Shown here piece after piece: positions 1 to 59,854 of a stretch of DNA of 64,000 bases. Every line of letters starts with the position of its first letter. Within the stretch, counting starts at the first letter, position 1. The stretch is from the NCBI RefSeq assembly GCF_019649055.1, contig NW_026570361.1:62001-126000 (forward strand). Reading direction: 5' to 3'. A program made the position numbers and the translations under genes. Under the pieces are notes generated by a model. It worked only from the letters and a program-made list of their open reading frames with translations, had not been told where the DNA came from and searched no databases. Source of the stretch: Paramacrobiotus metropolitanus. Lineage: Eukaryota > Tardigrada > Eutardigrada > Parachela > Macrobiotidae.

Positions 1-935
1 TTTTAAATTTATTAACAAGACTCGGTTTCTCCGCAAAATGGGAAAAAGTAGTCGGACCAAGTCGGCGTATCACCTTTTTGGGTTTGATAATTGACTCCGA
101 ACTAAAGCGGCTCGAAATTCCAGCGGAAAAACTAAATAATTTGTTGAATTTAGTGAAAGGTCACCAAAGTGCGAAGTCGATAAGTAAGAAGGATCTGCAG
201 GTGCTTGTCGGTCACATGTCGTTTGCTGCCAAAGCAGTTTACGGTGCCCGCACATTTACCAGAATTTTTATTGATTGTTTGTGCACCCTTGACAAGCCGT
301 GGCATAAAGTTAAAGTCAACCGACTCTTACGCTTCGAGCTGTCGTGGTGGAACAAATTTGCATCCGACTTTAACGGTCTCTGCCCGTGCCCGCTGGGTAC
401 ACCTCGGACAGTTATCACTGTCTGCACCGATGCATCCTTTTCAGGATTTGGTGCAGTGGTAGAAGGCAGCTGGCTTGCCGGCACTTGGCGGTCATCAAGT
501 TCGAATAAGCCCAACGGCTTTGAACAAAACTGGCTGGTGCCGCCGTACGTGCACGCATCGCTGGAACGCAATATTAATTTTTTGGAGCTGATAGCCGCCT
601 GCGTTCCGCTCATAATTTTTGCTTCATATTTTAACGGCGCCAAAGTTGTCGTCCTCTCAGATAAAACGCAAACCGTGTCGTTTCTGAACAGAGGCACAAC
701 AAAAAATGTAGAGGCGCTGAAATGGCTTAAGTTCGTGTTTGCCGCAAGCAACGCCCACAACTTCCGAGTGGTCGCTACGCACTCCGCGGGCGTTAAAAAT
801 GTGTTGGCGGATGCCTTGAGCAGATTAACAGAGGCCCCGCAACATGCTTCGCGTTTCTTTGAATTTTTTAAAACCAGTTTTCCCGGGCCTAATCTACCGT
901 CTTGTCCTTGTTGCAGTCTCCCAACTGCGTCATAA
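1..935 (+). CDS. DIRS-like reverse transcriptase C-terminus and RNase H (partial)
   Basis: The frame is open from the window edge; the first in-window ATG at 78 is internal to the protein. The start matches an RT thumb region (FLGLIIDSELKRLEI), followed by an RNase H domain with the expected acidic residues: CTDASFSGFGAV, NFLELIAAC, VVLSDKTQT and LADALSRL. The protein copies element RNA into DNA and removes the RNA strand. Its last 92 bases overlap the recombinase frame. The N-terminal RT, including the polymerase aspartates, is outside the window. Confidence 0.8.
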   Translation, partial: LNLLTRLGFSAKWEKVVGPSRRITFLGLIIDSELKRLEIPAEKLNNLLNLVKGHQSAKSISKKDLQVLVGHMSFAAKAVYGARTFTRIFIDCLCTLDKPWHKVKVNRLLRFELSWWNKFASDFNGLCPCPLGTPRTVITVCTDASFSGFGAVVEGSWLAGTWRSSSSNKPNGFEQNWLVPPYVHASLERNINFLELIAACVPLIIFASYFNGAKVVVLSDKTQTVSFLNRGTTKNVEALKWLKFVFAASNAHNFRVVATHSAGVKNVLADALSRLTEAPQHASRFFEFFKTSFPGPNLPSCPCCSLPTAS

Positions 936-1869
936 GCTGTCCGAACTTCGGCTTAAATCAATGGCGGCTACGACCTCCAAAACGCGTTCTTCACAATGGC
1001 GAGCATTCGTGACTTTTTGCGAGCAGTATAAGTTACGCGCTCTTCCCGCTACGGAAGAGACTGTTGCTCTTTATGTTGCACATTTGTCAAGGAAATTGGA
1101 GTTTGCTACAGTTAAAAATTATGTCTCCAGTTTAAGTTCCTTTCATACGATAAATAATTTGTTTCCTCCGGATTTAAACCATTTTTTAATAAAGCAGGCT
1201 TTGACCGGCTTGGAGCGTATTCGAATTGAGCTACCAAATAAGCGGGATCCGCTTATGCCGGCGGATTTACTAAAAATCCACGGTAACTTGGGCTCGGTGG
1301 AGAAAAAGTACCGACGCTGTTTTTGGGCAGCTACGGTGGTGGGATTTTTCTCCCTGCTGCGCAGCGCAAACTTATTTGTAAGCGATGTTGGTTGTCACTT
1401 CCTCGCAGGCGATGTGCAGTTCACGCAGGATGGCGCCCTGCTGTCGGTTTGGGTTTTAAAGACTGACCGTTTTAAAATGAAAACAATAACCTTACCAGTC
1501 TTCAAACTTAATAAGCAAAACGCCTTGTGCCCTGTAAGGGCGCTCGAAAAGCTGTTAAATTCAGCCGACAGACAGCCGCAAGACGTGCTGTTTTCACATT
1601 CTGATGTCGGCCTTTTGTTACCTATGTGTTCTAACCTATACAACAAATTATTATCAGCCGCCGCCTCCGCTGCCGGCATTCCATCCTCACGCATATCCGC
1701 CCATTCGCTACGAAGCGGCGCCGCAACGTATGCAGCATCCGTGGGGATTCCACCCGAATCACTAAAGGCCCAAGGACACTGGCGCAGCGACTGCTACCAG
1801 CGGTATATTCAACGGGACCACGAATGTCGACTGGAATTCTGCCATGCCATGCGCGACGCAATTCATTAA
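844..1869 (+). CDS. DIRS-like tyrosine recombinase (integrase)
   Basis: About 341 residues from the ATG at 844; a later ATG at 961 (MAATTSKTRSSQWRAF) is also plausible. The N-terminal SAM-like DNA-binding part is recognisable (QWRAFVTFCEQY, then VALYVAHLSRKL). The catalytic part shows Arg in FFSLLRSANL, the His-x-x-Arg box in AHSLRSGAATY, His/Trp in GHWRS and the nucleophilic Tyr in YQRYI. It would insert a circular cDNA by site-specific strand exchange. All catalytic residues are visible, so the frame looks intact. It overlaps the preceding RNase H frame in another phase, as is usual for DIRS elements. Confidence 0.85.
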   Translation: MLRVSLNFLKPVFPGLIYRLVLVAVSQLRHKLSELRLKSMAATTSKTRSSQWRAFVTFCEQYKLRALPATEETVALYVAHLSRKLEFATVKNYVSSLSSFHTINNLFPPDLNHFLIKQALTGLERIRIELPNKRDPLMPADLLKIHGNLGSVEKKYRRCFWAATVVGFFSLLRSANLFVSDVGCHFLAGDVQFTQDGALLSVWVLKTDRFKMKTITLPVFKLNKQNALCPVRALEKLLNSADRQPQDVLFSHSDVGLLLPMCSNLYNKLLSAAASAAGIPSSRISAHSLRSGAATYAASVGIPPESLKAQGHWRSDCYQRYIQRDHECRLEFCHAMRDAIH

Positions 1870-2608
1870 ACCCTACTGCAGCGGCTGCATCCTCTCTGTG
1901 TTTGTTTTTCTGGGGGTTTGGAGGTTGTTTTTCCCCTTGCGTTGTGTTCGTTCAATGAGAAATAAATAAGCCCCCTTTCAGTTGTGGTGTCGCACCGGAA
2001 ACAATAATGAGGTGCGAACAGTACAAGTGTGGTTCTGACCAGGTTTGGCAATATCCAAGAATGTCGTCACTTTGAACGGAAACCCTCAAGACTGAATTAC
2101 ATACAGTAATTTTCCGGACATTCGAATAAGCAAAAGTGGAGAAAATGTAGTGCGGTTGAGATTGTAGCTCACTTTGGTCAGATATACAGTAACAACGCTG
2201 CATCAAGCTTCTTCCATCTGTAACTTTTCGCCGTGACTTGGCCCCAGGCTTCCTGGCCAGTTTAACTAGGTCATTCGTAATAGCAGGATCCATTTGCCCC
2301 AAATGTATTACAATTGTTTTTGCTCTATACGGGCAGAGGTCATGTGCTGAATAACTGTATCCGCCTCAACGATTTTGCATTCACAAAAATAGACAAATGC
2401 CCGTTCTAAAGCCATCACGTGCAAAAGTCTGCATATAGCGTCCATCAGTAGCAACTGAATGCTATGCCAACGTCTTGCTGTCTATGGTTCTTATTTTTGC
2501 GTGCCTGAATCCATAAGTCCATTTCCTTTTGCATCCATACATCGATACTATTATAGTCCGCAGATGTAGGAATTGTCCGCAGATTAGTGCTCCCATATTG
2601 CACTTCGA
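1870..2608. other. No gene seen; DIRS 3' tail and gene A upstream region
   Basis: No convincing coding exon on either strand. The left part probably includes the untranslated end and terminal repeat of the DIRS element, which I could not delimit. The right part should hold the promoter of the F-box gene starting at 2609. Confidence 0.4.
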
Positions 2609-5368
2609 ATGGCCACGAACGCGACATCGTTGTACTTCCGGGAGCTGTTTCCTGGTGCCCGTGTGGTGAACTACGGGAACACCGTGCTGGTGCAGCGGGA
2701 CAACGGCCAATGGTGGCTGGGGTACGTTCAGGATATCGACGGTGACCAGTTCTTCGTTGATTTCGATGCCAGCACAATCAAACCGGAATGGATTCACTCT
2801 CAGCGTATTTGGCCGCACCGTTTTCTTCGTGAAACTGTGGTGCCGAGTTCTGTTCTGAGTATGGCCGTTCAAGTAGCCCTGCGTAATGCCAGCGGAGAAC
2901 CGATGGTTTTTCGACCCGGAACGATCGTCAGGTTCATAGGTTATGATTTCTACTGGGTCAGCGTTGTCGATTCAGATTCAACTAATTCAGTGGAACAGCA
3001 CATCGTACAGACTTACCAGTTCGTCAAACATCTGCCGGCGCACGACAGTGAACCACGTTTCTTTAAAAGAACCAACGGTATCGTGTACCGGAAACACGTG
3101 ATTAAATTCCCCGAGGCGCATTTGTTGCGCGACGCCCATTTCCTGCCAATGTTTATCGTTCGCGCATGCCAGTTGACGTTAGATACCGATGAGCGCCAGT
3201 GTGATGGTAACTGCCAATTCACGGCATCTGCTGAAAGGGATACGTTTATATTTCGCTGTAGCGGATTGCACCCCCGGTGGGAACAGCGTTTCGAGTTCCA
3301 TGTCGGGTGTCGCGTGTTTGTCCGACTGGGAATCGACGAGGTGACTTTCATCTGCGCTGAAGTTGACGGCGACACCGCTGGGCGCAGAATGTTCTGGACT
3401 GAAGAGTCCCTGAAGTCCGCCTGCGAGAGCTTCCTGACCAAGGAACATTCGCGGCCACAAGGCAACGTCGTCCCTGAGGAATGCGTAGGGAGTTGTCAGA
3501 ATGGTGAGCTGGCTTAGTAAAGCTTAGAATAATCTTCCGTGCCTTAACATACGCGACCACTTCCTGCTGGTTATTAATTGACCTGTTGACGGTAATTTAC
3601 AGCTGCGCAAGACATGCACATCAATCAGCTTTCCCTTGAGGTTTTGGCTAGCGTTCTTCGCCAATTAGATGTTGATACTCAATTTTGCTTGAGCCGGTAC
3701 GTCAGCGTTAATTCTTCCCTCCGAACATGTTTTACAACAATATACCTATTCTAACGTTCTAAAGCTTTACTACGAGTAGGGTTGTCTTAATTTTTTAACA
3801 TCTATTGCAACTCGGTCATTCTTGCTGTGACCTTTGCGCAACATGTAATCGCTGGAAGCGCTACTAAGTGATTCTAGTACTTTCAAACATACGAAAGTCC
3901 CTTCGACACCTGTGGCGCACAAATCAGCTTCTTTAGCCACAATGGTAGTAAGCGCAGCTTTCATCGTGTGACCAACGTGGTTGCCGCCTTGTGCATAAAG
4001 TTTTAAGTCAACTGCTCTGATGTAAACCCAGTAAAAGCTTATACAGCTGTAATTACAGTGATTACAAAAAAATAATAACGCGGTTGTTTGGCAGGGTGTG
4101 TACATTATGGGTGGTCATTTTACAAGAAAATTTGACCAGCCAGCATCTGCTCGTCGATATTCGGCGAGCCTGCGTTAGCGAAAAGTGGTCGGGCGGCTCA
4201 GTTGATGCATAGGAATCGTACCAGCTTAACATGCACAGGATTCGGGAGGTCATGCATCGTAGCATTACCTGTCGTACACAGACGGTCGTGCTGATTGACG
4301 ATGAAGATTACTATGCAGATAAATATGGCAGTGGTGATTTTGGTCGGAAAGCGTATGGCATGATGTTGTTGCTGCTAGCCAAGGGAATACGTTTGCGCCT
4401 GCTGGTTGTCAAGAACGGTTTCGATGGCCGGGAACAACCCTGCTTCTCGTTTCTTGGACTCTACAGAAATTCCCCAACGGAGTACAGTTATGAATGTAGC
4501 ACTTTAAAGACAATGAGCAGCTTATGCGAGCAGCTGATGCTAGTCAACTACACCGCATCTGATCGCGTCGGCGTTTGCTCGCTACTGTATCTACTGTTCT
4601 TCCCAAGCGGTACGCCGTGGCCGGATGACGTGCGCCGTTTCGGCCAGCTGGATGTGGTTATTCCTATGGTACGGCTCCGTCTGACGGAGACATCCGTGGA
4701 GCAGTGTCGTAGCTTCCTAAGCGCGGTTAATGACAACTGCTGCGCGGTGGTTCAACGTGTGTACGACAAGGTCGCCGCCGCGCACGCAGGCTGGTTGCAG
4801 ACGCTGCCTTATCCCGACGGATGGGTGGGCATTCGTGAGTTTCTTAAACTGTGAGTATTTTCATGTGTGTTGCATTTTCTTGAATCTGCTCTATTAGCCG
4901 ATCGCCCAGGCATCGCTCTGGGTGAGAAACTCCGGTGTGGTAATAATGTGCAGAACAATCTTACTTCAATGGTAAACCGGGTTTCGCGAACCATCCAGGA
5001 AGACAGATGCAGGCGAAGCTACCATCACTCTGCTGATAAAAAATTCCACGCGGATGGAGCGTGGCTGACTGAAGTGCAAGGAAGGGCGAAGTATCACCCA
5101 ATAATGTCACGGCCCACGGTCCCGTTTTATTGAGGGTCCGGAATTGAAATCGTTTTGTACCTAGCATGCTGTACAGTATTAATGATGGAGAGCACTGCCC
5201 TGACTTGTGTGTGGCTGTAACGTGATAGACAATGTCGTATTCTTTAGCTTCAGCAGTTTTGGCTCCGATGGTCCGCAACGATGGGCGAATGCGGATTTGC
5301 GGCAGCTGGACGTCTCGCTGCTGAGCCCGTTGGCCATGGCCCTGCTGGACGGCTACTACGCTAACTGA
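2609..5368 (+). pseudogene. F-box family gene, copy A (four exons, one in-frame stop)
   Basis: Exons 2609..3503, 3603..3696, 4095..4850 and 5257..5368; all junctions are GT-AG and the phases agree (1857 nt in total). Exon 1 starts at an ATG with VNYGNTVLVQRDNGQWWLGY, a segment that looks like a Tudor/Agenet fold, followed by a second similar segment and a Cys-containing region. Exons 2 and 3 join inside an F-box (LSLEVLASVLRQLDVDTQF, then VCTLW), which in other proteins recruits Skp1/Cullin ubiquitin ligases. The C-terminus is family-specific (IREFLKL, then LRQLDVSLLS). The only lesion is a TAG at 4210-4212 in exon 3. Exon 3 is 756 nt, exactly as in copy B, so there are no indels. It could be a very young pseudogene, a polymorphic stop or a readthrough site. 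Confidence 0.7.
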
Positions 5369-6747: not shown

Positions 6748-9656
6748 TTAGTCTTTGAAGAACCTGTCAAAAACTGCGAAAGTCAAATTCGTCAACGAGG
6801 CAATGTCCAGCTTTCGGAGGTCCATCGTGTCCCAGCGTTGCGGATGGTAATCAAAGCGGAAGCTGTTGAGCCTGATCAATCAAAATTCAATAATAAACGA
6901 AGCAGCTAAAACCCATCCGGTGCTACGATGATGATTAGATCATGTTACGTTTTTATGTCTACGAAACGCAAAAACGATCATCGGGAAAAACAGATTCAGT
7001 AGCCGTTTAAGTCGGGGTGGCAACGAACCTTTGGCAGCAGCTATCGATGCAGCCCGAATAACATAACCATTATTACTAATTTTGTACATTTTGCGCACTA
7101 AAGGATAGCTGCAGTTATCAAATTGCAATATACGCACTTGCATCAACGCAAAAACAGCTTACAGTTGCAATATAAGACGAATACCGGTCCACTGATCCGG
7201 ATAGGACACCGTCTGCACCCAACGCGCATGGATTGCTGAGACCTTGCTTAAAAGTCGTTGGCCAGCGGCCGGGCAGCTGTCGTTTGCGGCGGCCAAAAAC
7301 ATTTGGTATTGTTCGGCCGTCGTCTGTGTGGAGCGAAAGCGTAGAAACGGAATGACAATATCGCTGGAAGCGGCACGTGTATCATTGCGCGTAAACGCCG
7401 CTTCCGAGCGCGGCAAAGCCGACTGTTCGTTCCCGTACAGGATCTCCAACGCCGATTTGGTTATCGCTCTCGTCGCGTTGTAGTTGATCAGCAGCAGCTG
7501 CTCACAGACCGACATCATCGCGGATAGTGCGGGGCACTCGAAAGAGCCGCTGCCAGGGTTGCAGTCGATGTATAGCACATCACCATAGTGATCATAGCCG
7601 TTCTTCACAATAATGACAGGCACGCGGATCTGCTTAAATTGAAGTACTGATTTGACACTCCACAATCGTTCCGAGATGCAGACACCAGTCATAGAGCGAA
7701 GGTATTTCTCGTCTCCCATCAGCGTCAGCGTATGAGTGCGTCCATGAACGATACCGTCCAACATGGTAATCAGTTTGTGAGTGAGAAAGTTGTTGTAGAT
7801 TATTGAAAGTAAGGCACCATCATCACGAGGCCGTTTTTCGCATGTTGCGCAAAGGTCATAGAGAATATGCCGTTTGCCCACAAACTTCCGGTAAAGCAGT
7901 CGCCACAGAGCACAAACTCTGGTGGACCAATGCAAACCAAGCACAATTAAAGTAATTTTCAACAGTTAATTCCTACAGTCCTTGGTTCTTAATAACCGAA
8001 TAAAACCTGTTGCATCAGTTGTATTATACAAGTCACATCTGAAAGGGAAATCTGCTGAAACTAACTGTTTTACTTTCCTAGACTACATTTAAATCTGGTG
8101 CAAAAAATATATCACTAAGTACGCTCGTTAACCGGGACAACTAAAATGCTGTGACAGGTAAGTATGAGGGAGCGGACTGCCATAACGTACCGGCTTGTCT
8201 GCATCAGAGATTCCACGTCCAAATTGAGCAAAATGTTTGTGACAATCGGATGCAGAATTTGATCTATGGAAACCTCTTCCACACCTGCAGAATATCCAGA
8301 TTGGAAATACATCACATCTGCTCAACCTACTTGTTCTGTACTGATCTAACAGTAATAATAATAATAAATATTTCAACTGTGATTGCTAGGCCAGCCCAAA
8401 TTGTATTTTCATTATTTACTGATAATACTTAGGATATTATGAATAATAATAATAGTTTCAATTCGTAAACAATAGTACCACAGTTATAATTTTGGGACAG
8501 TACATCAAACTGCTGAATGGCTCAACCTTGACAGCCATACAATGTCCCTAAAAAATGTTCGGAAGCAAAAAGGAAAGGAAATACTGATTATGGGTTTGAA
8601 ATACACAATTGAATCGCCACTTTTTCGGCAATAGCCATCAAGATTGACATAATATAACAAGATCCTCATCCCACGGTCACACTACTAAAAATTATTGACA
8701 TTTTTATATAGAACACTTTATAATGATTATAGAATAATTTCTATGCTATAGAATACCTTTTGCACTAACCATAGTACTGCAGCGCGGGCCACAATCTCCA
8801 TGGGCTTCTATTCGTGTTAGTATAGTCCGTTCTCATTTTCTCAGTGAGATAGTCGTCGCAAGCTTTTTTCAGAGAATCTTCGTTCCACAGCAGGCGTCCC
8901 GGTGGTTTTATCGTGCACTTCAGCCAAAACAAATATGACCGTATCAAATTCCACTCGCACAAACACCTGACAATCCCAGTCGTAGGAAGTTTTGACAAAC
9001 GAACACTGACACCGTACATCCCTTGCATCCATCATAAACGTTCTTCGAACGGAGCAGTCTGCACCACACAAATCATAGCCCCGACTAAACTCTAACTGGC
9101 GTCTGTAGTATAAAAACGTCGGCATGAAATCGACTTCACGCAACCAGTGAGCTCGGGGGAACCGGATGACATGTTTTTTATACAAGCACCCGGTAGTCCT
9201 ACCGAAGAAGCTATCTCCATCGTCAGCCGATGGAAGCTTTTCAACAAACTGATTGCGCTGTACGATCTGGAACGCCGTTGGTTGCGGGTTTCTCTCGCCA
9301 GGATCTTGATCACCCAGGCATACACAGAAGAACAAAGCATCCACCTCGTCGATGATCGTGCCCGACTGGAAGACCAAGGGCCCAACGGCGGAATGCCGCA
9401 GTGCTACCTGGATAGCTTTTCCTCTGTGCCATTTCTTTCGGGAAAGGAAATGATGTGGCCAGAGATGTTCAGTACGGATCCATTGTGCCTTGATTGAACT
9501 GGTATCAAAATCGACGAAGAAAAGGTCGCCATCAATATCCTGAACGTATCCCAGCCACCATTGGCCGTTATCGCGCTTGACGAGCACTGTATTCCCGTAA
9601 TTGACTTCCCGCAAACCCGTTAACAGCCTGCGAAAGTACAGCGGTGTCGCATTCAT
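6748..9656 (-). pseudogene. F-box family gene, copy B (four exons, one frameshift)
   Basis: Exons on the minus strand: 8770..9656, 8191..8284, 7163..7918 and 6748..6871, with GT-AG junctions at the same positions as in copy A. The N-terminal domain (VNYGNTVLVKRDNGQWWLGY), F-box (ILHPIVTNILLNLDVESLM then VCALWRLLY) and C-terminus (LRKLDIASLTNLTF) are all recognisable. The alternative ATG at 9668 adds four residues. Exon lengths sum to 1861 nt, one base more than a multiple of three. The extra base lies around 8891-8912: upstream of it one frame matches the family, and downstream (LLWNEDSLKKACDDYLTE) the next frame does. Everything else is open. A sequencing indel cannot be excluded. Confidence 0.7.
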
Positions 9657-10115
9657 TGCGTAGGGCATTTTAAAAAGCGACAAGTAATTATAATAAGCTG
9701 AACACATACTATACGCCCTCGCTACGAACCATACCAGTCTCGCGAAGGTAACGACAACGCAGAAACGAAGCCGAATATTAGTGCCGTTGTAACAGGACAC
9801 TGAGATATTTAACAATTGTTGTTGCTCTCTGCTGTAAAAGTGCCCACTACGAGGACCGAACGCCGAACGGTCTGATATAAAAAACGGTTGTCTGTGGCGC
9901 TTTGCTGCGACTGAACCGGACGAACACACTACACAGACAAAGCTAGAATCCGCTAGAATCCTAGAAGCCACTGCTAATGGGGTCGTTATACCAAGTTAGT
10001 ATTGCCGACGCCTTTAACTGGTCATTCGATTGTTTCACCCAAAAAGTGAAGATTATCAGTTGGAGTGTTCTGCTTTGCGACTCCCACACATCCATCTCAC
10101 TGTAAGCTGAGCACC
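9657..10115. promoter_or_regulatory. Divergent promoter region between F-box copies B and C
   Basis: A 459-bp gap between the ATG of copy B (-) and the ATG of copy C (+). The two genes are head to head, so promoters for both should lie here. I see no clear TATA box or initiator that I would defend. The B reading frame happens to stay open upstream to 9971 but shows no family similarity there. Confidence 0.4.
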
Positions 10116-15336: not shown

Positions 15337-18300
15337 TCAAAGGCTGTCGTGACCAGTCGACTGGGACACGGCAATTGAGGCATCCGTCGACTGGATGGAA
15401 TCGTCACTGTCTGGCTCCACGGGACCAAGACCCTCGCGCAGTAATATTTGTCGGCGTATTTCTGCGCGGCGATCAGCCAGCCACATCTAATAAAATGTCT
15501 TCCTTTCCTTATTCAAAGCACAACATTCAGTAGCATCGAATTACCCGTATTTCGGCTTCTTGTAAGTTCAACTTTTCGGCCACCTTCTCTCTTGTGAAGA
15601 CATCGGGATATCGTGTTTTATTGAATTCTATTTGACAAGCAAAAAATACACGCTATAATATTATACACAACAGCGGCGTATAAGACGGTCCGAGACTGAC
15701 CTTTCTCAAGTTCCGCGACCTGTTCGTCTGTGAATGAGATGCGTTGACGCTTAGTTCTGCGTTTGAGTTTTTCAACAAACCGGGCTTGGGCATCGGTTTT
15801 GTCCGTGGAACTGTTACTATCCGATGGCGTGTCCGGTTGATCGCCTGACGGCGTCGTTTCTTCTAAAACAAGAGCAGATTAGAGTTTGAGCAGTTTCACT
15901 GAAAATGAAGACTGGCAAACCTTTTTTCCACAGCCAGACGGTTCCAGCGATGCAAGCAAATATCGCCATGATATGCAGCGGCAGGTCGGCGCGTTCGGGA
16001 AAGAGAAACGGCCAGATCGTCAGCGCAGCATAACACCAGGCCATGCTCAGGATAAATAAGCCAGTGAGAATGTAATGCATATTGGTTAGCGGCGTGGTTT
16101 CCCATTCGGTTAACGGTTGGCGCACCACCTCGGGATCCCTCGGCCGCGTGCGCTTGGCGGTGCAAAAACGCCAGCAACAGTAACCGCATAAGCACAGTAT
16201 GATGACAATGGTCATCAGCGGCAGTCCAAAATAAGCGATGGCAGCGAAGGGCGCCGAGATGGCGTAGCCCAGCCAGCCGACAGCCAGTGCGCCGAGGGAG
16301 AGATCGGGGGTTCCATCCGGAAAGAAGGCTTCGTATGTTGTATTGTCGAAGTACGGGCGCAGATCCATCCAGTAAGACATGCAGGCGGTGATTCTGTGCA
16401 GCACCTGCAACACCCCCATTTAGCGTAAAGTGACACAACAGAACTCCCGCACAATTTTTCCCGTTTTGGTGGGATGAGAAAAGAGATGCTTTGTTTAATA
16501 CAAATTTTCCCAGCATGCGCTTCTCTGTTCGAACCCGCTTTTTGCGAATTATGCCAAAGGCATTTGCTCCCATTGCACACCGTTTCTGTACTATTTATAT
16601 GTATAATAATGTATTGCCAAATTAAATGAGTGCCAATTTTATTCTAATAATTGTAAATCCGTAAAGTAAATTCATAGACTCCCGACAAACAAATCAAGAA
16701 CGATTTCGTTCAGAATATAACAATCTAGAACGAGTGAATACGTACCACGATTTGCGTTTCATTTCCCGCACTCTCTGTCCCGTTAACCCCTTCTTCTCCG
16801 CACGTCCAACCACCAGAAAGTGCCGGCACACACGATAGCACAACCTGCAGGAAAACGAAGAGGAGGTTGTGGGGATAGTTGAGATGGAGAAACAGTCCCA
16901 GCACGATAAATCCAGGGGTGAACACCAATCGTCGCCAAACGACCGCCCTAATGACCACAGCCGCTTTTTGGGTTTCCCTTCGGTTCTCTACTTTTCGGTC
17001 TTTGCTGTAAAGAAAGTTAACGTTAACTATTATATTTCCCCAATCGTTACAGTTGTTGTTCAGGATGCTGGCTAATAGACTGGAACAGTGTGCGTTAATA
17101 GCTAATAAACTGCTTTCCTGCAGACGGAGTCTAATGCGACCAGTTTGCCCATTTTTGCTGCTTAAGTATTTGTGTGATGCTTTTTTGGCACACAATTAAT
17201 TTGTCCGCTAATGAAGAAAAATTTTGTTTAAAGTGTAGAAAATGAAATACTGGCAAAAGTAAAACAGTTCATTCTTTCGGTTAATTGTAGACAACAAAAT
17301 TAATCAAATTTCGTGTAACTTACAGAAATGGTCGAAAGAAAAGCCCGATTCGCGATGGAATTCTCACCAGCCCCGCGAGATTCATCGAGCAGAACCCCGC
17401 CCACCCGCCGACCACGACACAGCTGGCCGGCAGAACGCCGGCATCCCCGGCAACCGCCCGCGCTACCCAGATGGCTAGATTCAGTGTCAGAACAGGCGGG
17501 ACAAGCAAGGACGCAATGTACGCAGCGGTGGCAACGGCGACTAGGATCCAGCGGCGACGTGTATGGCAGCGGGTGGCGGTGAGGAAGGCCGGTGGTGTAT
17601 CGTGGATGGCCCAGGTGGGCGTGTTCACCAGTAGACTCCACGGAAGGAGGATGCACAGCGCCACTGTGGGCACGACACAGATCAGCAGGAGAAACACAGG
17701 AGCGATGAGATCGAAGCCCAGGACGGGATTCTTGGTGAGGTCGACGGAGGTGTCGCAGAGGATGTCGAGAAAGGGAAACCACGGCTCCGAGGTGCGCAGC
17801 CAGAAGCACCGGTAGAAATTGCCCTGAAAAAATCACGATGTCTTTATTTATTCTGCAGCAATAACAAATAAGTCCATATCGGTTAAACTGTAACAAAACT
17901 AACGGTAACAAAAATTAGAAAATAAAATACAAAAAGCTATTCTTCTGAGCTTATACTTCTATATACTATGCTTCTTCTTCTAATACAAAAAGCTATACTT
18001 CTATAAAATACAAAAGAAGTAATTCTGAGAATGCAGTGATATGCAAGTCATAAAAATGGTTCAAATATTTGATTATATTTCTACTGAAGGATATGGTGGT
18101 TTTGTAGTGGTTGGGACATACAGGTTAGTTTTAGGTATGTCCTTAAACTCAAAGCTCCTTTTATTTTCCTTATAAAATTGTTCCAAAAATTAACAATTTA
18201 TCTGCAATTAAATCGCAGTAAATAACTTAATTTTTATCTTACTTTTTAGTTCTAATTTAGTCATTCAATTAGCTTTATTTTTTCAAAATTTGTAGGATAT

Positions 18301-18801
18301 GGGATTTGTTCGGATTATCACATCCCAGAGTATGTAGTTAATAAACCGATTTTGTACAGAAATAGATCACCGTAATTTACAATTGTTCTGGTTTCGCTAA
18401 TGGTATTCGTATAATGGTATTCGTATAATGCAAAATATGGCCAAACTTGGCTTCAACAATAAAAATAGCGATTTTTTCAACAAAATATTAGAAAGGCTTA
18501 CCTGCTGGAGATCGCTCCAAATTACTGAATCCAGTACATCCATCTCCGCCCGGATATCCGTGCGGGCTTCGCGTAGAGCGGGAAACGCCAATCGCATCAG
18601 GAACCGCGACAAATCCGTGCACAGTATCAGGGCCATAATGCTTTCGCACAGCATCTCGGCGTAGCGCCAGTTTTTCTGGCGCAAAAATGACTGCGACATG
18701 GTGCCGATCGCGACTGCCCGTGCTCGAAACGGAAGTTTTAGTTGACAATCGCCTGCCCGTAGAAAATCAAAAATTCCTTGACAAAATGGAGTAGCGTGCA
18801 T
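15337..18801 (-). CDS. Multi-pass membrane protein with C-terminal Paired-like homeodomain (seven exons)
   Basis: Exons: 18502..18801, 17324..17823, 16746..17004, 15921..16404, 15701..15862, 15545..15627 and 15337..15486. All junctions are GT-AG, all phases agree, and the total is 1938 nt (645 residues). Exons 2-4 encode about eight to ten hydrophobic segments (for example LIAPVFLLLICVVPTVALCI and LPLMTIVIILCLCGYCCW), with glycosylation sequons NGT, NET and NTT between them. Exons 5-7 encode a homeodomain: RQRISFTDEQVAELEK, then FNKTRYPDVFTREKVAEKLN, then MWLADRRAEIRRQ. Trp48, Phe8, Leu16, Phe20, Tyr25 and Arg53 are kept, but Phe49 is Leu, the near-invariant Asn51 is Asp and Lys55 is Glu. DNA binding is therefore doubtful. 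The function of the membrane part is unknown to me. Two fused gene predictions remain possible, but exon 5 has no start codon of its own. Confidence 0.7.
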
Positions 18802-27617: not shown

Positions 27618-29279
27618 ATGGGTCGGTGCTGTGTTGTCGGATGCAACAATAACGGTGATAAAAGTGGGTGCACTACGGAAGGACCGCATTCATTCCATAA
27701 GTTTCCAAATGCTCCCAATCTCCGAGGACATTGGGCGCGTCGAATTAATCGTCAGAACTGGACTCCTGGAATCAGTGCTGTTGTATGTTCAGACCATTTT
27801 ACACAAGAGTGTTTCACGGCGAAAGGGAGCAGAAAGATTCTGAAGGAAGGAAGTGTTCCAACTGTATTCGGAGTTGCAGTTAAACGTAAGAAGAGCAGCG
27901 AGCCCAGTAAGTACACTTTGAAGACTTTTATAGCAATTTGAATTACAAATTATAATTATAAATATACGTTAAACCCATTTTTAAGTTAGCTTATGTCGAA
28001 AAAAATTTACTGAATTTGCAGCCTCTACCAGTGCTTCCCCCAAGAAAAAGAAACTTCGAACGAGTGGGACTGACAATTTATTGGAAAAGAGTCTTGATTC
28101 TCCATGTGTTCAAGACACAGGTAACTTTGTTCTGCACGCAGATGAAAAACTTCAATAGTATTTTTACATATACCCAACTACTTTGCAGAATTAATGGATG
28201 CCAATATGATTGCTACGCTGAGGGAGAGAGTGGCACTACTGGAAGAGCAGCTGGCGTTTGCGAATATTCGCAGTCAAAATTTGGAAGCCATTATTGAAGA
28301 ACGCGACGAGCGCATCTCAGAACTGGAAGCACTACTCTGCCAGGACAAAGACGAACCTTACATCAGCGTAGACAAAATTGCAGATCTGAAGGCCAATGTG
28401 TTTCGACGAATTACGGGTGTTGTGAATTACGAGATGTTTAGCGAGATGGCGGAGAAGTTTTGTCATGCAATATCGAGTGCCTGCCTTAAAGAATCTGTAA
28501 ACGGGAAACCCAGACCTGAGCGTCGGAAGCTGTCAACGAGAAATCAGTTATTGTTGGTGCTATTTAAATTACGAATGGATTTAAGTTTCGAATTTTTGGG
28601 GGTTCTTTTCAAAATTCATCAAAGCACGGCCTCCAGAACTTTTGAAATGTGGATTAACGTCATGGCAGCTGTCATTAGGCGACTTGATTTTTTCCCATCC
28701 CGGGAAATGGTTCTGCAAGACGCACCCAGAGAGTTTATCGCTTCTGGGTTTGCGAACGTGCGGGTGATGGTGGATTGTTTTGAGCTGTTTATAGAGACTC
28801 CGTCTCATCCGGGGACACATTCGTACGCCTATTCAAGCTACAAGCATCACTGCACGGTCAAGTTTTTGATCGGAATTACACCAGCTGCGAAAATCAGTTT
28901 TATCTCGGAGGGCTATTTAGGATCCATATCTGACGAAAGCATTTTGTCCAAAAGCGGCTTGCTGGATTTACTGCAACCAGGTGACGCAATTTTGGCAGAC
29001 AAAGGCTTTAAATTGGCACCTAACGAAGCGCACCGGGAAATACAACTTATTACGCCAGATTTTTTAGGACAACGTGGACAACTGACAGCAGCAGAAATGA
29101 ACAATTCTTATTTTATAGCACGTCATAGGGTTCACACTGAACGAGGTATTGATCGTGTCACTGATTTCCGTATTTTGTCTCCTTGTATACCACAAACAAC
29201 GGTGTCTTTTCTTAGCGAAATTGTTGATGTTATAGTTTTTCTAGTTAATATTTCAACGGATATCTTGGCAAAAAAATAA
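27618..29279 (+). CDS. THAP-domain DDE transposase (three exons)
   Basis: Exons 27618..27906, 28022..28120 and 28189..29279; phases agree, 1479 nt, 492 residues. The N-terminus is a THAP zinc finger (CCVVGCNN, FHKFP, VCSDHFTQECF, ending GSVPTVF), which binds element ends. A basic linker and a coiled coil (ALLEEQLAFANIRSQNLEAI) follow, then a helix-turn-helix (LSTRNQLLLVLFKLRMDLSF). The DDE_Tnp_4 core has acidic residues in VMVDCFELFIETP, GDAILADKGF and HTERGIDRVTDF. It would cut and paste the element. No stop or shift is seen, so it may be active. Confidence 0.85.
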
Positions 29280-29623
29280 GTTCCTAGAAATTCTGATTAG
29301 GTTTGAGGCTTTGGGAAATTCTATTGCGGTCTGAACAAAACCGAAACGTTCTGACGTTCTGACGGGTTTATTTAAAATATACTTGTATGCTATTTTAATT
29401 AATTCTATGAGCAAAAACTTTATAAACTAAAGAAAAGTATGAATTTTAATTTTGACAGAGCAGGTTAAATCATAAAAAAAGTATCATATCGCAGCTGCCA
29501 GTATTCAACAGGTAGCCGCACGCAGGCTGCGCTATCATAGAAGTCGAAACATGTGAAACAGCCATTACATACACACGAAGGTAATCAATTTGTTTTTTAT
29601 TTTGTTTGGTTTTCTTTATTATC
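29280..29623. other. Spacer between the two transposon genes
   Basis: 344 bp of AT-rich sequence with no ORF; it probably contains the 3' end of the transposase transcript and the promoter of the nuclease gene. Confidence 0.4.
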
Positions 29624-31415
29624 ATGGAGTGGACACCATTGACAGCCCGCTATCGCTGGGCGCTTCCCTTTCAGTCTTTTTCTGAACAGGGCATTTCGTT
29701 GTACTACTCGAAATATTCTTCCCGGTCTGCTCGACCTTTCAAAACATCGGATGATGTACGGGATCCTGTCCTTCCGTCAGACGCAAGAGCTCTGTTTTCT
29801 GCAAACCGTATACGTCTACCACTCGAGTTCAAGTTAACCAATCCTGCTGGTATTATTTTCCGATCTCATTGCCATGCTGAGATGAAAAACTTGAATTATG
29901 AAGTGAATCTGACGTTCTCCAGTTCATCCCTGGTGCTCGCAAAGTGCCACTGCGCTGCAGGCAAAGTAGGCAACATACACTGTGCTGCGTCCGGGTCACT
30001 GGAGGTTTTTGGGGCATCGTGTAAGCACGTTGGAGCTGTCGCCCTTATGCTTGTGTACTTATTAAATCATAACGATTATCCAAATTTTCTAACCTGTACG
30101 TCAAAGCCGTGCTCTTGGAGCGTTCCGCGACCAGCGCGAGGTAATGTGCCACGGGTGAGCGAGTTCTCAGTTCGCAGCTCATCGACCAGTGAACCGTCCA
30201 AAATGGTACGTCGAAGAACTTATAACGCCATTGACGAAGCGGTGGCCGAATCTACTGCCTTGGCGATTGGTCAATGGGCAATTGAAAAAAAATTACCTGC
30301 AGCAGCATTGCTCAAGCCTTCAGCTATGATAAAAAGCCGGAGTATCATGCGGACTGACCTTATCCCTGCTCAAGCGGAAATTCCGATCTACCCATTACCG
30401 CTTCCGTTTCAGAGCAACAAGGCTAAATACGTCGAAGACCAAGTTGCGCCGGAAATCATGAACCTTAGCTGGGAGATTCTGCTGTTCTACCAATCCTCTT
30501 GGATGAATTTCGACTTGAAACAAGCCCAAGATTTATCCGCTCGAACCGCGGATCAATCGCGATCTCTGGATTGGAAGAACATGCGGAAAAAAGTGGTCAC
30601 AGCATCAAAAGTGCATTCGGTGATAACTCGTCAGAAAGATTTTTCATCGGCCTTTATGGAAACTTTAATCACTGATTCCCGACCGACGAACCAAATGCAG
30701 CAAGGTCTTGACCAGGAGGACGATGCAGTGCAAATATACTTGCAGTCGCAACGTGTGGCTTTTCCGGATATTCAAGTTGCGAAGGTTGGCCTGTGCATCT
30801 CTCCAGGTATGTACATTGCTACACTAAAAACAAAACAGTAAATTAAATTTGTCTTAAACAGTTGTAATTACCAGAGAATACTTCTAAGAAACGGCTTCTG
30901 TTACTACTACATGAAAAGTATTTGTTGCAGGCTTTCCATTCATGGGAGCCAGCCCAGACAGAGTGGTGGTTAACGGGACGGAAGACAGAAGCGTTGGCCT
31001 GATAGAAGTAAAGGTTCTGACGGAAGACAAAAAGTTTCAATGGAATCTAATTGCTGACAGAAATGAAATCAGCGTCGAAGAGCTACTGACATCGTATGTT
31101 GGATTGAAAAAAGCCATTTCTCCATCGTTCACGTTTTATTTAAACAAAACGCCGACCGGATGGACTTTGAAAAAAACGCACGGATATTACAGCCAGGTAC
31201 TTACCCAGATGGCGGTTACTGGGTTGAGATTTTGTGACTTCGTGGTGAAAACTGATTCAAAGGTGTTCATAGAAAGGATTGAATTTGTGGAAGACGAATT
31301 TTTCAAAAGCAGGTATTTTAATGCAATCACAAAATTCTACTTCACCCATTTTTTGCCTTTTTTATATGACAAGCATGTTGTTGAAGATTCAGTGCAGGTG
31401 AATAAAACAAATTAA
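29624..31415 (+). CDS. SWIM zinc-finger / YqaJ-type exonuclease of the transposon (two exons)
   Basis: Exons 29624..30806 and 30931..31415, phase 1 junction, 555 residues. The first in-frame ATG is at 29624; an upstream TTG extends the open frame. A SWIM-type metal site is visible (AKCHCAAGK, then GASCKHVGA). The C-terminal half is a YqaJ/lambda-exonuclease fold with active-site residues Asp in FMGASPDRVV and Glu-x-Lys in VGLIEVKVL, then GYYSQVLTQMAVTG. In ISL2EU elements such nucleases are thought to help process DNA during transposition. The frame is intact. Confidence 0.8.
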
Positions 31416-36572: not shown

Positions 36573-38600
36573 TTGCCAGAGTTTCCAGGTTTTATCGCTC
36601 GCCATGCCATTGGCAATGCCACTGGCAGGTGCCAATGCCACGTTTTACCCCCTGCCTACATCCAGGACATTGATGGCGATAACGTCTTTATTGACTTCGA
36701 CGCCGGCACCGCACCGGCCCAGTGGATTCATTCCAGCCATGTCTGGCCGAACCGCTTTCTCAAGAGTACTCAAAAAGGCTCCGTCTATGTGGCGCTGCGT
36801 GAAAAAGACGACAGGCCGATGGTGTATCGAGCGGGGACCTTGACGAGGCAAATATACGGCATGTTTTATGTGGTGCGGCTAGAGAACCCAACCGGCTCTT
36901 GTGTCATGCATCCATGTCGGATTGTCAAACGGCTGCCGGTGCGAGCCAAGAACCGCAGCTTATTCGCCAGTAAAAACGGTCTCAGATACATTAAACACGT
37001 GGTGCAGTTTGACCAGGCGAGCCTACTGAGAGATGTGGATTTCTTGCCTCTTTTTTTGGATTGCACATGCCGGGTCAAATTTAACGAGGGGTATGTTGTG
37101 TGTCAGGGCAGAATTCAGATATCAGTGGGAATGGACAACTTTAGGTTCAAGTGCAGATGTGGAACGACGAGCATTGATTTTGACATCGGCTGTCGGGCGT
37201 TTGTACGCGTGGCAGATGACACAGTTACGGCTATTTGTGCTGAAATCCACGGCGATGCCGCCGGACGACGGATGTTCTGGGATGCAGGTGCCCTGCGGCA
37301 AGCGTGTCAAATTTATTTGGCGGCACAACAGTCCAGTGGAGCAGACAGCATTATCGCTGGAGATCGTGGAATGGCGGCCTTCGAACCCGGTAAGCGTAAA
37401 TTGTCAGTAGTTTAATAGTCCCATCTATTAGTATAAAGTACAGAGTATTTAACATAATATATATATATCTATTGGTACGGATTGCCAGTCTGACTTTTCC
37501 TTGCTTGCCACAGCATTTACTTGAATTTTTGCAGACGTCGAAGACATGCTCATCGGGAATTTGCCGGCGCTGATAGCGGCAGCTGTTCTGCTTAATATGG
37601 ACTGGAGTACTCAGTTTTGTATGAGCCGGTATGTTTTGTATTCCTGTGTTCTCGAAAGTTGTTACAGTTTTTTACCCTGATTCGTGCCGGCATTAGGACT
37701 TGAGATGCGAATTTAATCGCCGATGCTGGCGCGTGGCAGTTAACGATAAGATGCACCGGGAAATTATACAGTACTGTCATGAACCCTACATTTAAACTGA
37801 ATCTTCCTTCATTTGTATCAGGGTTTGCGCACTATGGCGCTGCATTCTACGGGAAAATAATGCCAAGCGGCACATTATCTTCAATATCGGCCGGATCGGT
37901 GTCAGCCGGCCATGGAAGGAGGCTTTAAGCTCCAAAGAATTAAATGACCTCAACGCATACAAACTTGTAGCCACGCTAAATGCGAATATAACGCAGCAGA
38001 CGCGATCGGTGGCGGTGGTTGACGAGGGACGGTACTACGATAACATGAACGACTTCCGTAACAAACTGTTGATGATCAAAGATATCCTGGCAGCAAAAAA
38101 CCTCCACATTCCGCTGCTCGTCGCCAAGAACGGGTATGATTCCGTGGAGAATCCGCACGGTTCATTTCTGGGTCTTCACTGCAATTACGCGACATGGGAG
38201 AATTACCAATGCGGTATAATAGCAGACCTAATGAGCGTGTGCCAGCAGCTGGTGCTGCTCAACTATACGGCGTCCAATCGGAACGGCTGTCAGTCGCGCG
38301 TAAACATGTTTTACCTAGCTGCTGGTGTCCCGTGGCCCGAGCAAGACACAGGGACTGCGCGCGGGGATCCTGATGGGCAGCTGGACGTGGTTATTCATCG
38401 TCTACGCTTCTACTGGACGGAAACACGTGCCGAACACAGCCGGCGCTTTCTAGCCGCCGTCAACGACCACTGCCCGCCGGTTAGTCAACGGGTATTGGAT
38501 AAGGTCACGGCGGTGTATGCGCACTGGATGTGGACTCGGGACTATCCCGACGAGTGGGTCGGCATTCGGCGATTCCTTCAACTCTGAGTAACTGCATAGG

Positions 38601-38802: not shown

Positions 38803-38856
38803 ATGAATGCCCTTTCTGTGTAAATGGTACTGACTGGTCAAACGTGGTAATTGACC

Positions 38857-44496: not shown

Positions 44497-45908
44497 TCAG
44501 TCGGCGTAATATCCGTCCAGCAGGGCCATGGCCAACCGACTCAGCAGCGAGACGTCCAGGTTCCGCAAATCGACATGTTCCCATTGCTGTGGACCAACGG
44601 TGCAAAAACCGCTGAACCTAAAAGTTAGGAACATACTGTATATATTACAATAAATTACACCATAGTGACATCGTACTAAATCACTGGGTGCTATGCCACC
44701 TAGGGACTGGACGACTCGACTTGGCCAAGAACGGATTGGCCAAGGTTACCGGATTCTGCTCTGAAAAGGGTTAACTCGCTTTAACTACTTTACATTTGAT
44801 GGACAGCCATCGCTAGCCTCCACCGCGTTAGCCATCTTGGGCGGATGAAAGCGCTCCACGCTAGGCTTATGCGCAAATGTTCGTATAAGTACTGTCAGGT
44901 ACAACCATTATTTTCACCCGGTCCGATGCTTTAGCGGTTCACAAATGCACCAAAATGAAGAAACTACAAGAATATGTGGCAGTACTCACAGTTTCAGAAA
45001 CTCGCGAATGCCGCTCCATCCGTCGGGATAGGCCAGCGTCTGCACCCAGCCCGCTTGCACAGCTGTAACCTTTTCATAGACACGCTGACTAACGACAGGA
45101 CAGTTGTCACTGGCCGCAGATAAGAATCGATGTTGTGCAACGGGCGTCTCCTTCAGACATAGACGCACCAACGGAACCACCACATCCAGCTGGCCGCTAC
45201 GCTTCACGTTTTCCGGCCACGGCACACCGCTGTCATGAAACAGTGTATACAACAGCGATTCCCTGCCGCTGCGATCCGACGCGGTGTAGTTGACGAGCAG
45301 GAACTCCTCACACACCTTCTTCATGCTCTCCAGGAGAGCGCATGCGTAACCGCTCTCCGTCTGGGAAGTCCTGAAGAGCCCGAGGAAAGCGCAATACGCC
45401 GAGCGCCCATCGAAACCGTTCTTGACAATCATTCGGCGCAGTCGAACGTCCTTGGCTACCAATAAATCCACCAAGTGCAATGTTTTAATCCCGAAATCCC
45501 GGCCGTAATCATTAGCATAGTATTTTTCTTCATCAATCAACATTACGGATTGTGTATGACGAGTGATGGTGCGATCCACAACCTCCATGATTTTGTAGTC
45601 GTTAAGCTCTGCTGATCCATAGTAATCAAGTAAACCGTCTGACCAAAGATCTCTGATGCATATCCGGCCAATATCTATGATAAAATGCCGGCTGGTTTCG
45701 TTCTCCTGTAGGAGGAGCCTCCACAGCGCACACACCCTAACAGACAACGTATTTGAGTAAACAAAATAATATTAAGCAAACACCTTTATCAGCGAACAAC
45801 CGATTTTTGCGTACCGGTCTATCCGGTGCTGAGTGTCAACATCCAGATTGCGTAGAACGCAAGCAAGGATCTCCAGGCGAAGGTCGTTGAGGCACATGTC
45901 CTGTACAG

Positions 45909-50694: not shown

Positions 50695-50747
50695 AATTCG
50701 CCAGCAGGAAGCTGAGCGCACCTTAGCGATCTTATTCAGCGTCTGAA

Positions 50748-57646: not shown

Positions 57647-57855
57647 TCATAACTGAACTCGCATATTATTTCCAAGGCTGTCGAAATGGCGAGTCGATTG
57701 GGACACGGTAACTGGTGCGCCCATCGACTGGATGGCATCGCTGCTGTCCTGTCGAATTTTGCGTTTCAATTTTTCTGCAGATTGGGCTGGGACATCGTGT
57801 GTTGAACTATTACTATCCGAAGGCGTGTCCGCTTGATCGACCGATGGCATCCGTT
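57647..57855 (-). pseudogene. Tail of a second membrane-homeodomain gene copy, homeodomain missing
   Basis: Begins after an AAAAG acceptor-like site. QADTPSDSNSSTHDVPAQ and EKLKRKIRQ parallel exon 5 of the gene at 15.3-18.8 kb (DTPSDSNSSTDK, EKLKRRT). The sequence then passes directly, in frame, to SSDAIQSMGAPVTVSQST, which parallels the end of exon 7 (DDSIQSTDASIAVSQST). The 60-residue homeodomain and two introns are absent. Either a clean deletion occurred here or segment 1 gained the domain. The 3' end extends a few residues beyond the stop of copy 1. Confidence 0.7.
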
Positions 57856-58450
57856 CTTTTAAAAATTTTTTTTGTAATACTGTATGTCATTCAAAAGCTA
57901 AATGATTTGTGTACATTGTTCTGAAAACCGGGTACGCGCGCAACATCCAGCTGCCAAGATACGGGGAATTAAAATGGGCGAAAAGTTTGAATACCTTGTT
58001 GTGTGTATCCTGATTCAGATCTATATTGCCACGAATGGGATACACCAGAGCCGGCAAACCTGAAAGACTGACCAAAACCGATATTATATTCTGAAAGCCC
58101 GTAGTCGAAAACCCGGCCATATAGTATTTATTTCTTTCAAAACCTCTCCCGCTTCGAACGCGAAAGCGGAAGAGTTTTGACTACCTACCTTCACCAAATG
58201 CAACTAACTAACCAGGCAATGTTGCCACGTAAACCAACTAAAATATAGTATAGAGCAAGCTTCGTACGTAGGTGCACTTCAACTCAACCCGGTTATGCAG
58301 TGCTTTATTAAGCGTGCAGGCTTTACGGTAACTTCGCAGTTTATCGTCGTGGCTGAAGCGGTCTTGCGCTAAACGTCACGAATTTGGGGAGGAGCAACAA
58401 CTAACAGCAGTAAAACTTAAGAGCGAGTGAAAACTTAATCTCTGTAATAC
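57856..58450. other. Degenerate sequence upstream of the homeodomain-less tail
   Basis: The minus strand has a short open stretch (57887-58120, FQNIISVLVSLSGLPALVYP) with no clear partner in copy 1. A related piece recurs near 62520-62575 (GCGCGCAACATCC in both), so it is probably a dispersed repeat. Confidence 0.4.
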
Positions 58451-58455
58451 TATCC

Positions 58456-59000: not shown

Positions 59001-59286
59001 ACACTAAACACAGTCCGTTAAAAAATCGAGTGATTGAACTACCACTATTATCGAGTGTGACTCGCCGCACCTGGTTAGTATATCATGTTTTACTACTACA
59101 ATATTCAAAATCGATTAAACCTACCGTCGACCTCAAGAAACGCGGAGGCGACTGTTTTTTGTAATCAGTTATTATCCGGCTGTTGGCAAGCAATTTTACG
59201 CAAAATGCTTGATTTTCCTATTGAAAAAAAAAAACACAAAGAAGTAATAGTGAACTTAGTTAGCCCACAATAGTGAGCTAAGACCA

Positions 59287-59549
59287 TCCACCTCCGCTCG
59301 GATATCAGTGCGGGCTTCGCGTAGAGCGGGAAACGCCAAGGGCAGCAGGAACCGCGGCAAACCCGTGCACATTATCAGCACCATAATGCTTTCATACAGC
59401 GTTTCGGCGTAGTGCCAAGTTTTCTGGCGCAAAAAGGATTGCGACATGGTGCCGATCCCGTCTGCCAATGCTCAAAACGGGAATAGTTTTTTTAAGATCG
59501 CTTGCCCGTAGAAGATTCCTTGACAAAATCAAAATGGAGTAGCGTGCAT
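59287..59549 (-). pseudogene. First exon of the second membrane-homeodomain gene copy (broken)
   Basis: Matches 18502..18801: GTMSQSFLRQKTWHYAETLY against GTMSQSFLRQKNWRYAEMLC, and FPALREARTDIRAE in both. An early stop follows MHATPF because of a short insertion, and similarity ends before the donor site. Downstream exons 2-4 are not present in this segment. Confidence 0.7.
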
Positions 59550-59854
59550 TTACATCATAATGACGAAAGGCGAAGAAAGAGTGCGGTTCAGCTGGGTCAG
59601 CCTTTCTTACAGTAGTAGCTTGAGGGCTCAAGTAAAGAGCGGCCGTTGCTCGACGGTATAGAACAGAATACACACATTCATAGGAGAAGGGAGGATTTTG
59701 TCTGTCCGGTGTCTGCTTGGGGTCGGTCCTTCGCGCGTGTAGTTTTTCGCAAGGGGGAAAAGGCCAACTTCTCTCACCGACGCCATAACAGTGTCCCTGC
59801 GGCGTGATATCAACCCTTGCCGTTCGGTTGCTTATCAAGTTATCAAAAATTCGA

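What the first reader, a model, noticed from the sequence alone, without database searches (positions are those of the whole stretch)
15337..18801. A multi-pass membrane protein fused in frame to a Paired-like homeodomain
Seven exons join with consistent phases into one 645-residue frame. Eight to ten hydrophobic segments are followed by a homeodomain-fold sequence. Ceramide synthases combine a partial Hox-like domain with membrane helices, but their Hox-like part precedes the TLC domain; a C-terminal Paired-type homeodomain after many membrane helices is not an arrangement I know.
Basis: partly seen in the sequence, partly recalled or inferred. Interest (0 to 1): 0.85.

Follow-up and report, generated by a model that had tools for sequence, protein, structure and literature searches.

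The report
Tardigrade membrane protein carrying Pax6 homeodomain
In a tardigrade genome, one gene of a little-known membrane-protein family has had part of a copied Pax6 eye-development gene, including its homeodomain, attached in frame to its end; the DNA shows where the piece came from, but whether the joined protein is made today has not been shown.

Summary
Seven exons (18801-15337, minus strand) with GT-AG borders encode 645 aa; relatives put the start at 18699, giving 611 aa. Residues 1-480 are a multi-pass protein from a tandem family without Pfam or PDB match. A complete homeodomain follows (55.6 bits). The genome is the tardigrade Paramacrobiotus metropolitanus.

The homeodomain exons are a segmental copy of the genome's own Pax6 gene (contig C39), introns included. 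A sister copy (C141:142-146 kb) shows the membrane exon running in frame into Pax6's linker exon; so the exon 4-5 intron is Pax6's own, with its phase. Seven of seven securely aligned indels in the Pax6-derived coding parts are multiples of three, against 4 of 15 noncoding ones. Six other relatives examined end at their own stop, without a homeodomain.

Against a working fusion today: the exon 4 donor is weak and follows six A's; the sister copy is broken; a third is a remnant; selection on the homeodomain exons is not shown on their own; DNA-contact residues changed (N51D). No RNA evidence was available. I call it a young chimeric gene, resembling ceramide synthases but not one of them.

The parts
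18502..18699 (-).
   Evidence: conserved start and exon in L044, L046, L047, L030; stops upstream in L044 and copy 3
17324..17823 (-). Exon 2, membrane part
16746..17004 (-). Exon 3, membrane part, with N-glycosylation-like NGT/NET sites
   Evidence: an NCBI model of the C186 relative has the same exon 3-4 junction
15921..16404 (-). Exon 4: last membrane segments; its final KK codon(s) and donor probably correspond to the end of Pax6's linker exon
15863..15920 (-). Intron 4, 58 nt, weak donor gtttgc after six A's; by position and phase (1) the Pax6 linker-homeobox intron
15701..15862 (-). Exon 5: Pax6 linker and start of homeodomain (to residue 18)
15545..15627 (-). Exon 6: homeodomain residues 19-46, 83 nt, same length as in the C39 Pax6 gene
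15337..15486 (-). Exon 7: homeodomain residues 47-60, short tail and stop, at about the place where the Pax6 exon ends
15437..15879 (-). Block of DNA alignable to Pax6 on C39, both introns included
   Evidence: 456 columns, 74.6% identity
15018..15023 (-). AATAAA poly(A) signal downstream of the stop
59259..59549 (-). Copy 3, remnant of exon 1 and its 5' part with stops
57674..57877 (-). Copy 3, remnant of Pax6 linker joined to the C-terminal tail; homeodomain deleted

Best explanation
This is a young chimeric gene of Paramacrobiotus metropolitanus. Shown from sequence: a piece of the Pax6 gene, from inside the paired-domain/homeodomain linker exon through the homeobox exons with their introns, sits at the 3' end of a member of a tandem family of multi-pass membrane proteins, with the membrane frame running into the Pax6 frame; related copies of this unit lie on contig C141, one broken and one a remnant; the copy in the finding has an open frame and lacks 51 codons that the sister has. 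Inferred from the shared join: the fusion came first and the unit then multiplied. Inferred: the spliced transcript is translated as a membrane protein whose native tail is replaced by a serine/aspartate-rich linker and a cytosolic homeodomain. Inferred with less certainty: the homeodomain keeps its core but, with N51D, F49L and K55E, no longer binds DNA in the usual way and acts, if at all, as a helical interaction or stability module of the membrane protein.
For: Spliced frame and complete homeodomain. Genuine Pax6 with paired domain on C39 whose linker, two homeobox introns and middle-exon length match. The sister copy's exon 4 carries 145 nt of Pax6 linker exon in frame: 0 of 5000 protein and 0 of 2000 DNA shuffles as good. 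Seven of seven securely aligned coding-part indels (6, 3, 9, 153, 6, 3, 6 nt) are multiples of three against 4 of 15 in noncoding parts of the same block (Fisher p 0.004) and 16 of 49 in all noncoding gaps counted (p 0.001). Frame-breaking gaps: 0 of 312 exon nt against 6 of 286 noncoding nt with L044 (p 0.012), 0 of 335 against 5 of 124 with Pax6 (p 0.001). The membrane part is under purifying selection: omega 0.26 and 0.30 on this branch, omega=1 worse by 7.7 and 6.5 lnL units. The joint model gives homeodomain-exon omega 0.48 and 0.52, omega=1 worse by 3.9 and 3.2.
Against: No transcript evidence. T at donor +3 occurs in none of the 19 other donors listed, and a one-base error in the A6 run would break the frame. 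On the homeodomain exons alone, omega of this branch (0.63) does not differ from 1 (0.48 lnL). The same joint model gives the broken sister an even lower omega (0.31), so either it broke recently or the test is biased. With L030 as outgroup and exons 1-2 only, omega of this branch is 0.83-0.90 even in the membrane part. Exon 7 differs more from Pax6 (54 of 96 nt identical) than the intron before it (47 of 57). Gap placement in exon 7 is uncertain: automatic alignment of L044 with Pax6 there gives gaps of 6, 5, 8, 15 and 26 nt. An open frame alone has probability 0.07-0.17 under neutrality.
Confidence: 0.57

Rival explanations
1. Decayed fusion: the ancestral fusion was coding, but in this copy the donor has weakened and the intron is kept; the protein is the 480-residue membrane part plus a 34-residue accidental tail ending at 15817, and exons 5-7 are relic sequence.
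For: Weak donor; retained-intron frame open to 15817, 514-aa product; both other C141 copies broken; homeodomain-exon omega on this branch not below 1 on its own; N51D, F49L.
Against: Frame and splice dinucleotides of all three Pax6-derived exons are intact; indel pattern; a stop at 15817 with two downstream introns would invite nonsense-mediated decay (116 nt upstream of the next junction; the rule is recalled).
Confidence: 0.33
2. Membrane-held transcription regulator: the homeodomain is released by proteolysis or shuttles to the nucleus and binds DNA, as reported for the fly ceramide synthase Schlank.
For: Precedent of membrane-bound homeodomain regulators (PMC13294678 and PMC5650468, passages); basic residues at the start of the homeodomain (sequence).
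Against: F49L, S50A, N51D and K55E in the recognition helix; the N51 contact is recalled as nearly invariant.
Confidence: 0.05
3. Two genes: a membrane gene ending in the intron, and a separate small homeodomain gene starting near exon 5.
For: None beyond the possible stop at 15817.
Against: Exon 5 begins in phase 1 like its Pax6 counterpart, and I saw no obvious own start for it (not searched systematically); the sister copy joins both frames inside one exon.
Confidence: 0.03
4. Assembly artefact: misjoined contig or homopolymer error creates the frame.
For: The published assembly of this species is Nanopore-based with Illumina polishing (PMC8277472, passages); six A's at the junction.
Against: The same membrane-Pax6 join is present in a second locus about 65 kb away with different sequence.
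Confidence: 0.02

Closest known systems
Pax6 (PRD class, Pax4/6) of the same genome, contig C39:214-218 kb
   Same: Linker motif, homeodomain (34 of 59 residues), both homeobox introns, 83-nt middle exon
   Different: No paired domain found and a short tail instead of the further Pax6 exon sequence; recognition-helix residues changed; attached to a membrane protein
CERS (LASS) class: ceramide synthases, fly Schlank
   Same: A homeodomain inside a multi-pass membrane protein; homeodomain divergent; some family members lack it (PMC4901127 section 17, PMC2211742 passages)
   Different: In CERS the homeodomain precedes a TLC domain; here it follows the membrane part, no TLC domain was found, and its Pax6 origin is recent enough to read at DNA level
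Tandem membrane family of P. metropolitanus (NCBI LOC129600615 and relatives on C141, C186, C97, C211)
   Same: Exons 1-4; 60-70% identity in the three aligned
   Different: Six relatives without Pax6 sequence, of the seven examined, have their own stop soon after the last membrane segment

Membership tests
Homeodomain (Pfam PF00046) | Score over the curated cut-off, full domain | tested here: met
   55.6 bits against 22.9; positions 1-57 of 57
Canonical DNA-binding homeodomain | Asn at position 51 with Trp-Phe at 48-49 (recalled) | tested here: not met
   W48 kept; F49L and N51D against Pax6
Pax6 (Pax4/6) | Paired domain plus homeodomain | tested here: not met
   Only the homeodomain is found in the product; the C39 gene has both
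Pax6 (Pax4/6) | Homeobox introns after residues 18 and 46 and Pax6-type linker, as in the genome's own Pax6 | tested here: met
   derived from Pax6, though not itself a Pax6
CERS class | TLC domain after the homeodomain | tested here: not met
   No TLC match; homeodomain is C-terminal
CERS class | Ceramide synthase activity | not tested
   Bench assay needed; not expected without a TLC domain
Tandem membrane family of P. metropolitanus | MSQSFLRQK start, four-exon layout, conserved membrane blocks | tested here: met
Membrane-bound transcription regulators | Nuclear release and DNA binding | not testable with these tools
   Needs localisation and binding assays

The most novel reading that the evidence does not exclude
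A functional membrane-anchored regulator built by capture of Pax6 homeobox exons: a second, independent origin after the ceramide synthases of a homeodomain carried by a multi-pass membrane protein, with the homeodomain retuned (N51D) for a new target or for protein binding and kept by selection.
Probability: 0.2. Interest if true: 0.82.

Novelty: new variant of a known kind. Interest (0 to 1): 0.6.

Why it matters
In the papers I saw, homeodomains in multi-pass membrane proteins are described for one class, the ceramide synthases, whose origin by exon capture has only been suggested (PMC2211742 passages; PMC4901127 section 17). Here the donor gene, the recipient family, the join and related copies are all still readable in one genome, so the steps of such a capture can be followed and tested with ordinary RNA data.

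Tried and rejected
Direct protein searches: full product, 0 hits at E<=0.001 of 7995 scored candidates; residues 500-645, one fly Rx protein at E<=1e-5 of 596; membrane-family alignment, one hit at E<=10 of 7994, an NCBI model of P. metropolitanus. The collection appears to hold few animal proteins (my inference from these results), so they say little about other tardigrades.

I first thought the sister copy's sequence past its stop was the family's own tail; 829 of 2000 shuffles were as good, and it proved to be Pax6 linker exon. One printed alignment against Pax6 used a wrong reading frame and is not used. I first counted nine in-frame indels (Fisher p 0.0006); on recounting the two in exon 7 against Pax6 turned out to be hand-placed (automatic gaps there: 6, 18, 39 and 3 nt for this gene, besides an end gap of 4; 6, 5, 8, 15 and 26 for L044, besides an end gap of 7), so I dropped them and report seven. 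For the same reason I do not use one search's count of all exon gaps against Pax6 (1 of 335), only its frame-breaking ones; the automatic exon 7 alignment of this gene keeps these at zero apart from the end gap past the Pax6 exon.

Structure prediction of the C-terminal half of a relative gave mean pLDDT 38: useless, no fold search made.

I considered reading the low omega of the homeodomain exons as proof of function; the broken sister scores lower still, so I did not.

Full report
WHAT IS THERE. On the minus strand, exons 18801-18502, 17823-17324, 17004-16746, 16404-15921, 15862-15701, 15627-15545 and 15486-15337 join with GT-AG borders into 645 codons and a stop. Pfam finds one domain over its cut-off, a complete homeodomain at residues 552-608 of the 645 (55.6 bits, E 4.7e-15). 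The part before it has about nine hydrophobic regions (merged), no Pfam match over a cut-off, no PDB match as a family alignment at E<=10 and no Pfam match in any of four aligned members at E<=1. The start conserved in relatives is MSQSFLRQK at 18699, so the product is 611 residues.

THE GENOME. The window lies in contig C141 of a 169.8-Mb genome of 533 contigs. A family search returned the NCBI protein LOC129600615 of Paramacrobiotus metropolitanus on a contig of 175412 bases, the length of C186 here; by eye its letters are those of the C186 relative. The published assembly has 170.5 Mb and a longest scaffold of 4,484,941 bases (PMC8277472, passages) against 4,484,719 for C1. I take the species as established.

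THE MEMBRANE FAMILY. Whole-genome search found exon-wise relatives on C141, C186, C97 and C211. Of nine other exon-4 places in that table, seven were examined (the two on C211 were not). All seven reach a stop soon after the last membrane segment. One is L044 (below); in the other six the 1.5-2.5 kb held downstream gave no match to the Pax6-derived block, and one search found no further exon 5 copy at E<=0.01. An NCBI model supports one such ending. In the four relatives where exon 1 was located, its donor is GC; here it is GT. In the membrane exons, omega on this gene's branch is 0.26 with L046 and 0.30 with L047 as outgroup, and omega=1 is worse by 7.7 and 6.5 lnL units; exon 4 with L031: 0.15, worse by 9.4; but exons 1-2 with L030: 0.83-0.90, not different from 1.

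THE HOMEODOMAIN IS FROM PAX6. In the PDB the strongest single-domain match is Pax6 (66.6 bits; a tandem engrailed construct with two copies ranks above it on its summed score). In the same genome, C39:214.3-214.7 kb encodes the same linker and homeodomain, with a paired domain at C39:217464-217817: the genuine Pax6. Window 15879-15437 aligns with it at 74.6% over 456 columns including both introns, so the copy was made at the DNA level. The homeobox introns fall after residues 18 and 46 in both, and the middle exon is 83 nt in both. Exon 5 DNA matches three places (this one, C141:142.8 kb, C39); that search missed the remnant in the window found, so counts are lower bounds.

HOW THE FUSION AROSE. 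L044 (C141:142-146.6 kb) holds a sister copy. In its exon 4 a TAA follows 13 codons after the last membrane tryptophan, and the same frame then runs open for 39 codons to a phase-1 donor. This stretch is the end of Pax6's linker exon: protein score 85, 0 of 5000 shuffles; DNA, 145 nt with gaps of 6, 3 and 9, 0 of 2000 shuffles. The membrane exon was thus joined in frame, inside an exon, to Pax6's linker exon, and the next intron is Pax6's own, phase 1. In the copy of the finding, exon 4 is 153 nt shorter (484 against 637) and ends AAA AAA G|gt where Pax6 has AAG AAA G|gt. That these last codons are the Pax6 ones is my reading of the shared phase and letters; six A's alone could mislead. The tail ends near the place where Pax6's exon ends; a stop follows where Pax6 has its donor.

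IS IT STILL CODING? For: seven securely aligned indels in Pax6-derived coding parts (6, 3, 9 in the linker exon; 153 in exon 4; 6 in exon 5; 3 in the tail; 6 in copy 3, where one automatic alignment splits it 2+4) are multiples of three; of 15 gaps in introns and 3' flank of the same block, 4 are (Fisher p 0.004), and of 49 noncoding gaps counted in all, 16 are (p 0.001). Some of the seven may lie on the Pax6 lineage. Frame-breaking gaps are rarer in exons than in adjoining noncoding DNA (the test treats bases as independent). With branch lengths shared with the membrane part, homeodomain-exon omega is 0.48 and 0.52, and 1 is worse by 3.9 and 3.2 lnL units. Against: without that sharing the branch does not reject omega=1; the broken sister (exon 6 not found, TAA in exon 4, TAG in exon 7) has omega 0.31 in the same model, worse by 7.2 and 7.0 at omega=1; the donor gtttgc is weak (0 of 19 other donors listed have T at +3); staying open by chance has probability 0.07-0.17; the third copy (57.7-59.5 kb) has lost the homeodomain and membrane exons. 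If intron 4 is retained the product is 514 residues. The balance favours a fusion that was coding in its past and may still be.

WHAT IT LIKELY DOES. Inference: conserved N-glycosylation-like sites in the exon 3-4 loop and a K/R-rich later loop put the C-terminus in the cytosol. Of 59 homeodomain residues, 34 match Pax6; changes include V47M, F49L, S50A, N51D and K55E. Core residues L16, F20, L40 and W48 are kept. Loss of N51, recalled as nearly invariant, argues against usual DNA binding. The likeliest role is a helical cytosolic module on the membrane protein; a released regulator is the bolder alternative.

COMPARED WITH WHAT IS KNOWN. In CERS proteins a homeodomain precedes a TLC membrane domain; it seems dispensable for synthase activity, and bound DNA in a one-hybrid test (PMC4901127, section 17 read). 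Exon shuffling has been suggested for its origin (PMC2211742, passages). Schlank is reported to bind DNA through it (PMC13294678, PMC5650468, passages). A 2026 screen for membrane-bound regulators lists CERS2-6 among its new candidates for PF00046; the word tardigrade does not occur in it (PMC13294678, passages). Searches for a report of this fusion: 'Paramacrobiotus'+'Pax6', 0 papers; homeodomain/membrane/fusion terms and tardigrade/chimeric gene/homeobox terms listed nothing of the kind by title; 13 papers hold tardigrade, homeobox, genome and Pax6, of which I saw passages of one. The library is open-access PMC only. A single pax6 ortholog is reported in the tardigrade Hypsibius exemplaris (PMC6065069, passages).

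Noticed in passing
57674-60201 (minus): Third, degenerate copy of the same unit: upstream region, exon 1 and Pax6 linker plus tail, with membrane exons and homeodomain gone.
   Followed up: partly
38851-43113 (+) and 47176-55857 (+): Two LTR-retroelement-like units. The first has reverse transcriptase, RNase H and integrase in one open frame. The second shows similar pol-like frames and a further long frame after pol, judged from the listed translations only. Observed only.
   Followed up: no
829-1869 (+): Tyrosine-recombinase-like frame (Phage_integrase, 25.5 bits, just under its cut-off of 27.1).
   Followed up: no
28146-29279 and 29585-31415 (+): DDE_Tnp_4/HTH_Tnp_4 transposase, followed by two frames of which the second (30915-31415) has a YqaJ-like recombinase domain, perhaps one mobile element.
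   Followed up: no
2588-3517, 8841-9995, 56093-56842; partly 36573-37415: Repeated gene family with the motif VLV.RDNGQWWLGYVQDIDGD (in 36573-37415 only its last part is seen); one member scanned, no Pfam match.
   Followed up: no
4213-4854, 7159-7965, 37796-38587, 44986-45771: Second repeated family with GIREFLKL-like ends; one member scanned, no Pfam match.
   Followed up: no
L044, L046, L047, L030 exon 1: Four relatives share a GC-AG donor (CAG|gcaag) at intron 1, while the gene of the finding has GT.
   Followed up: partly
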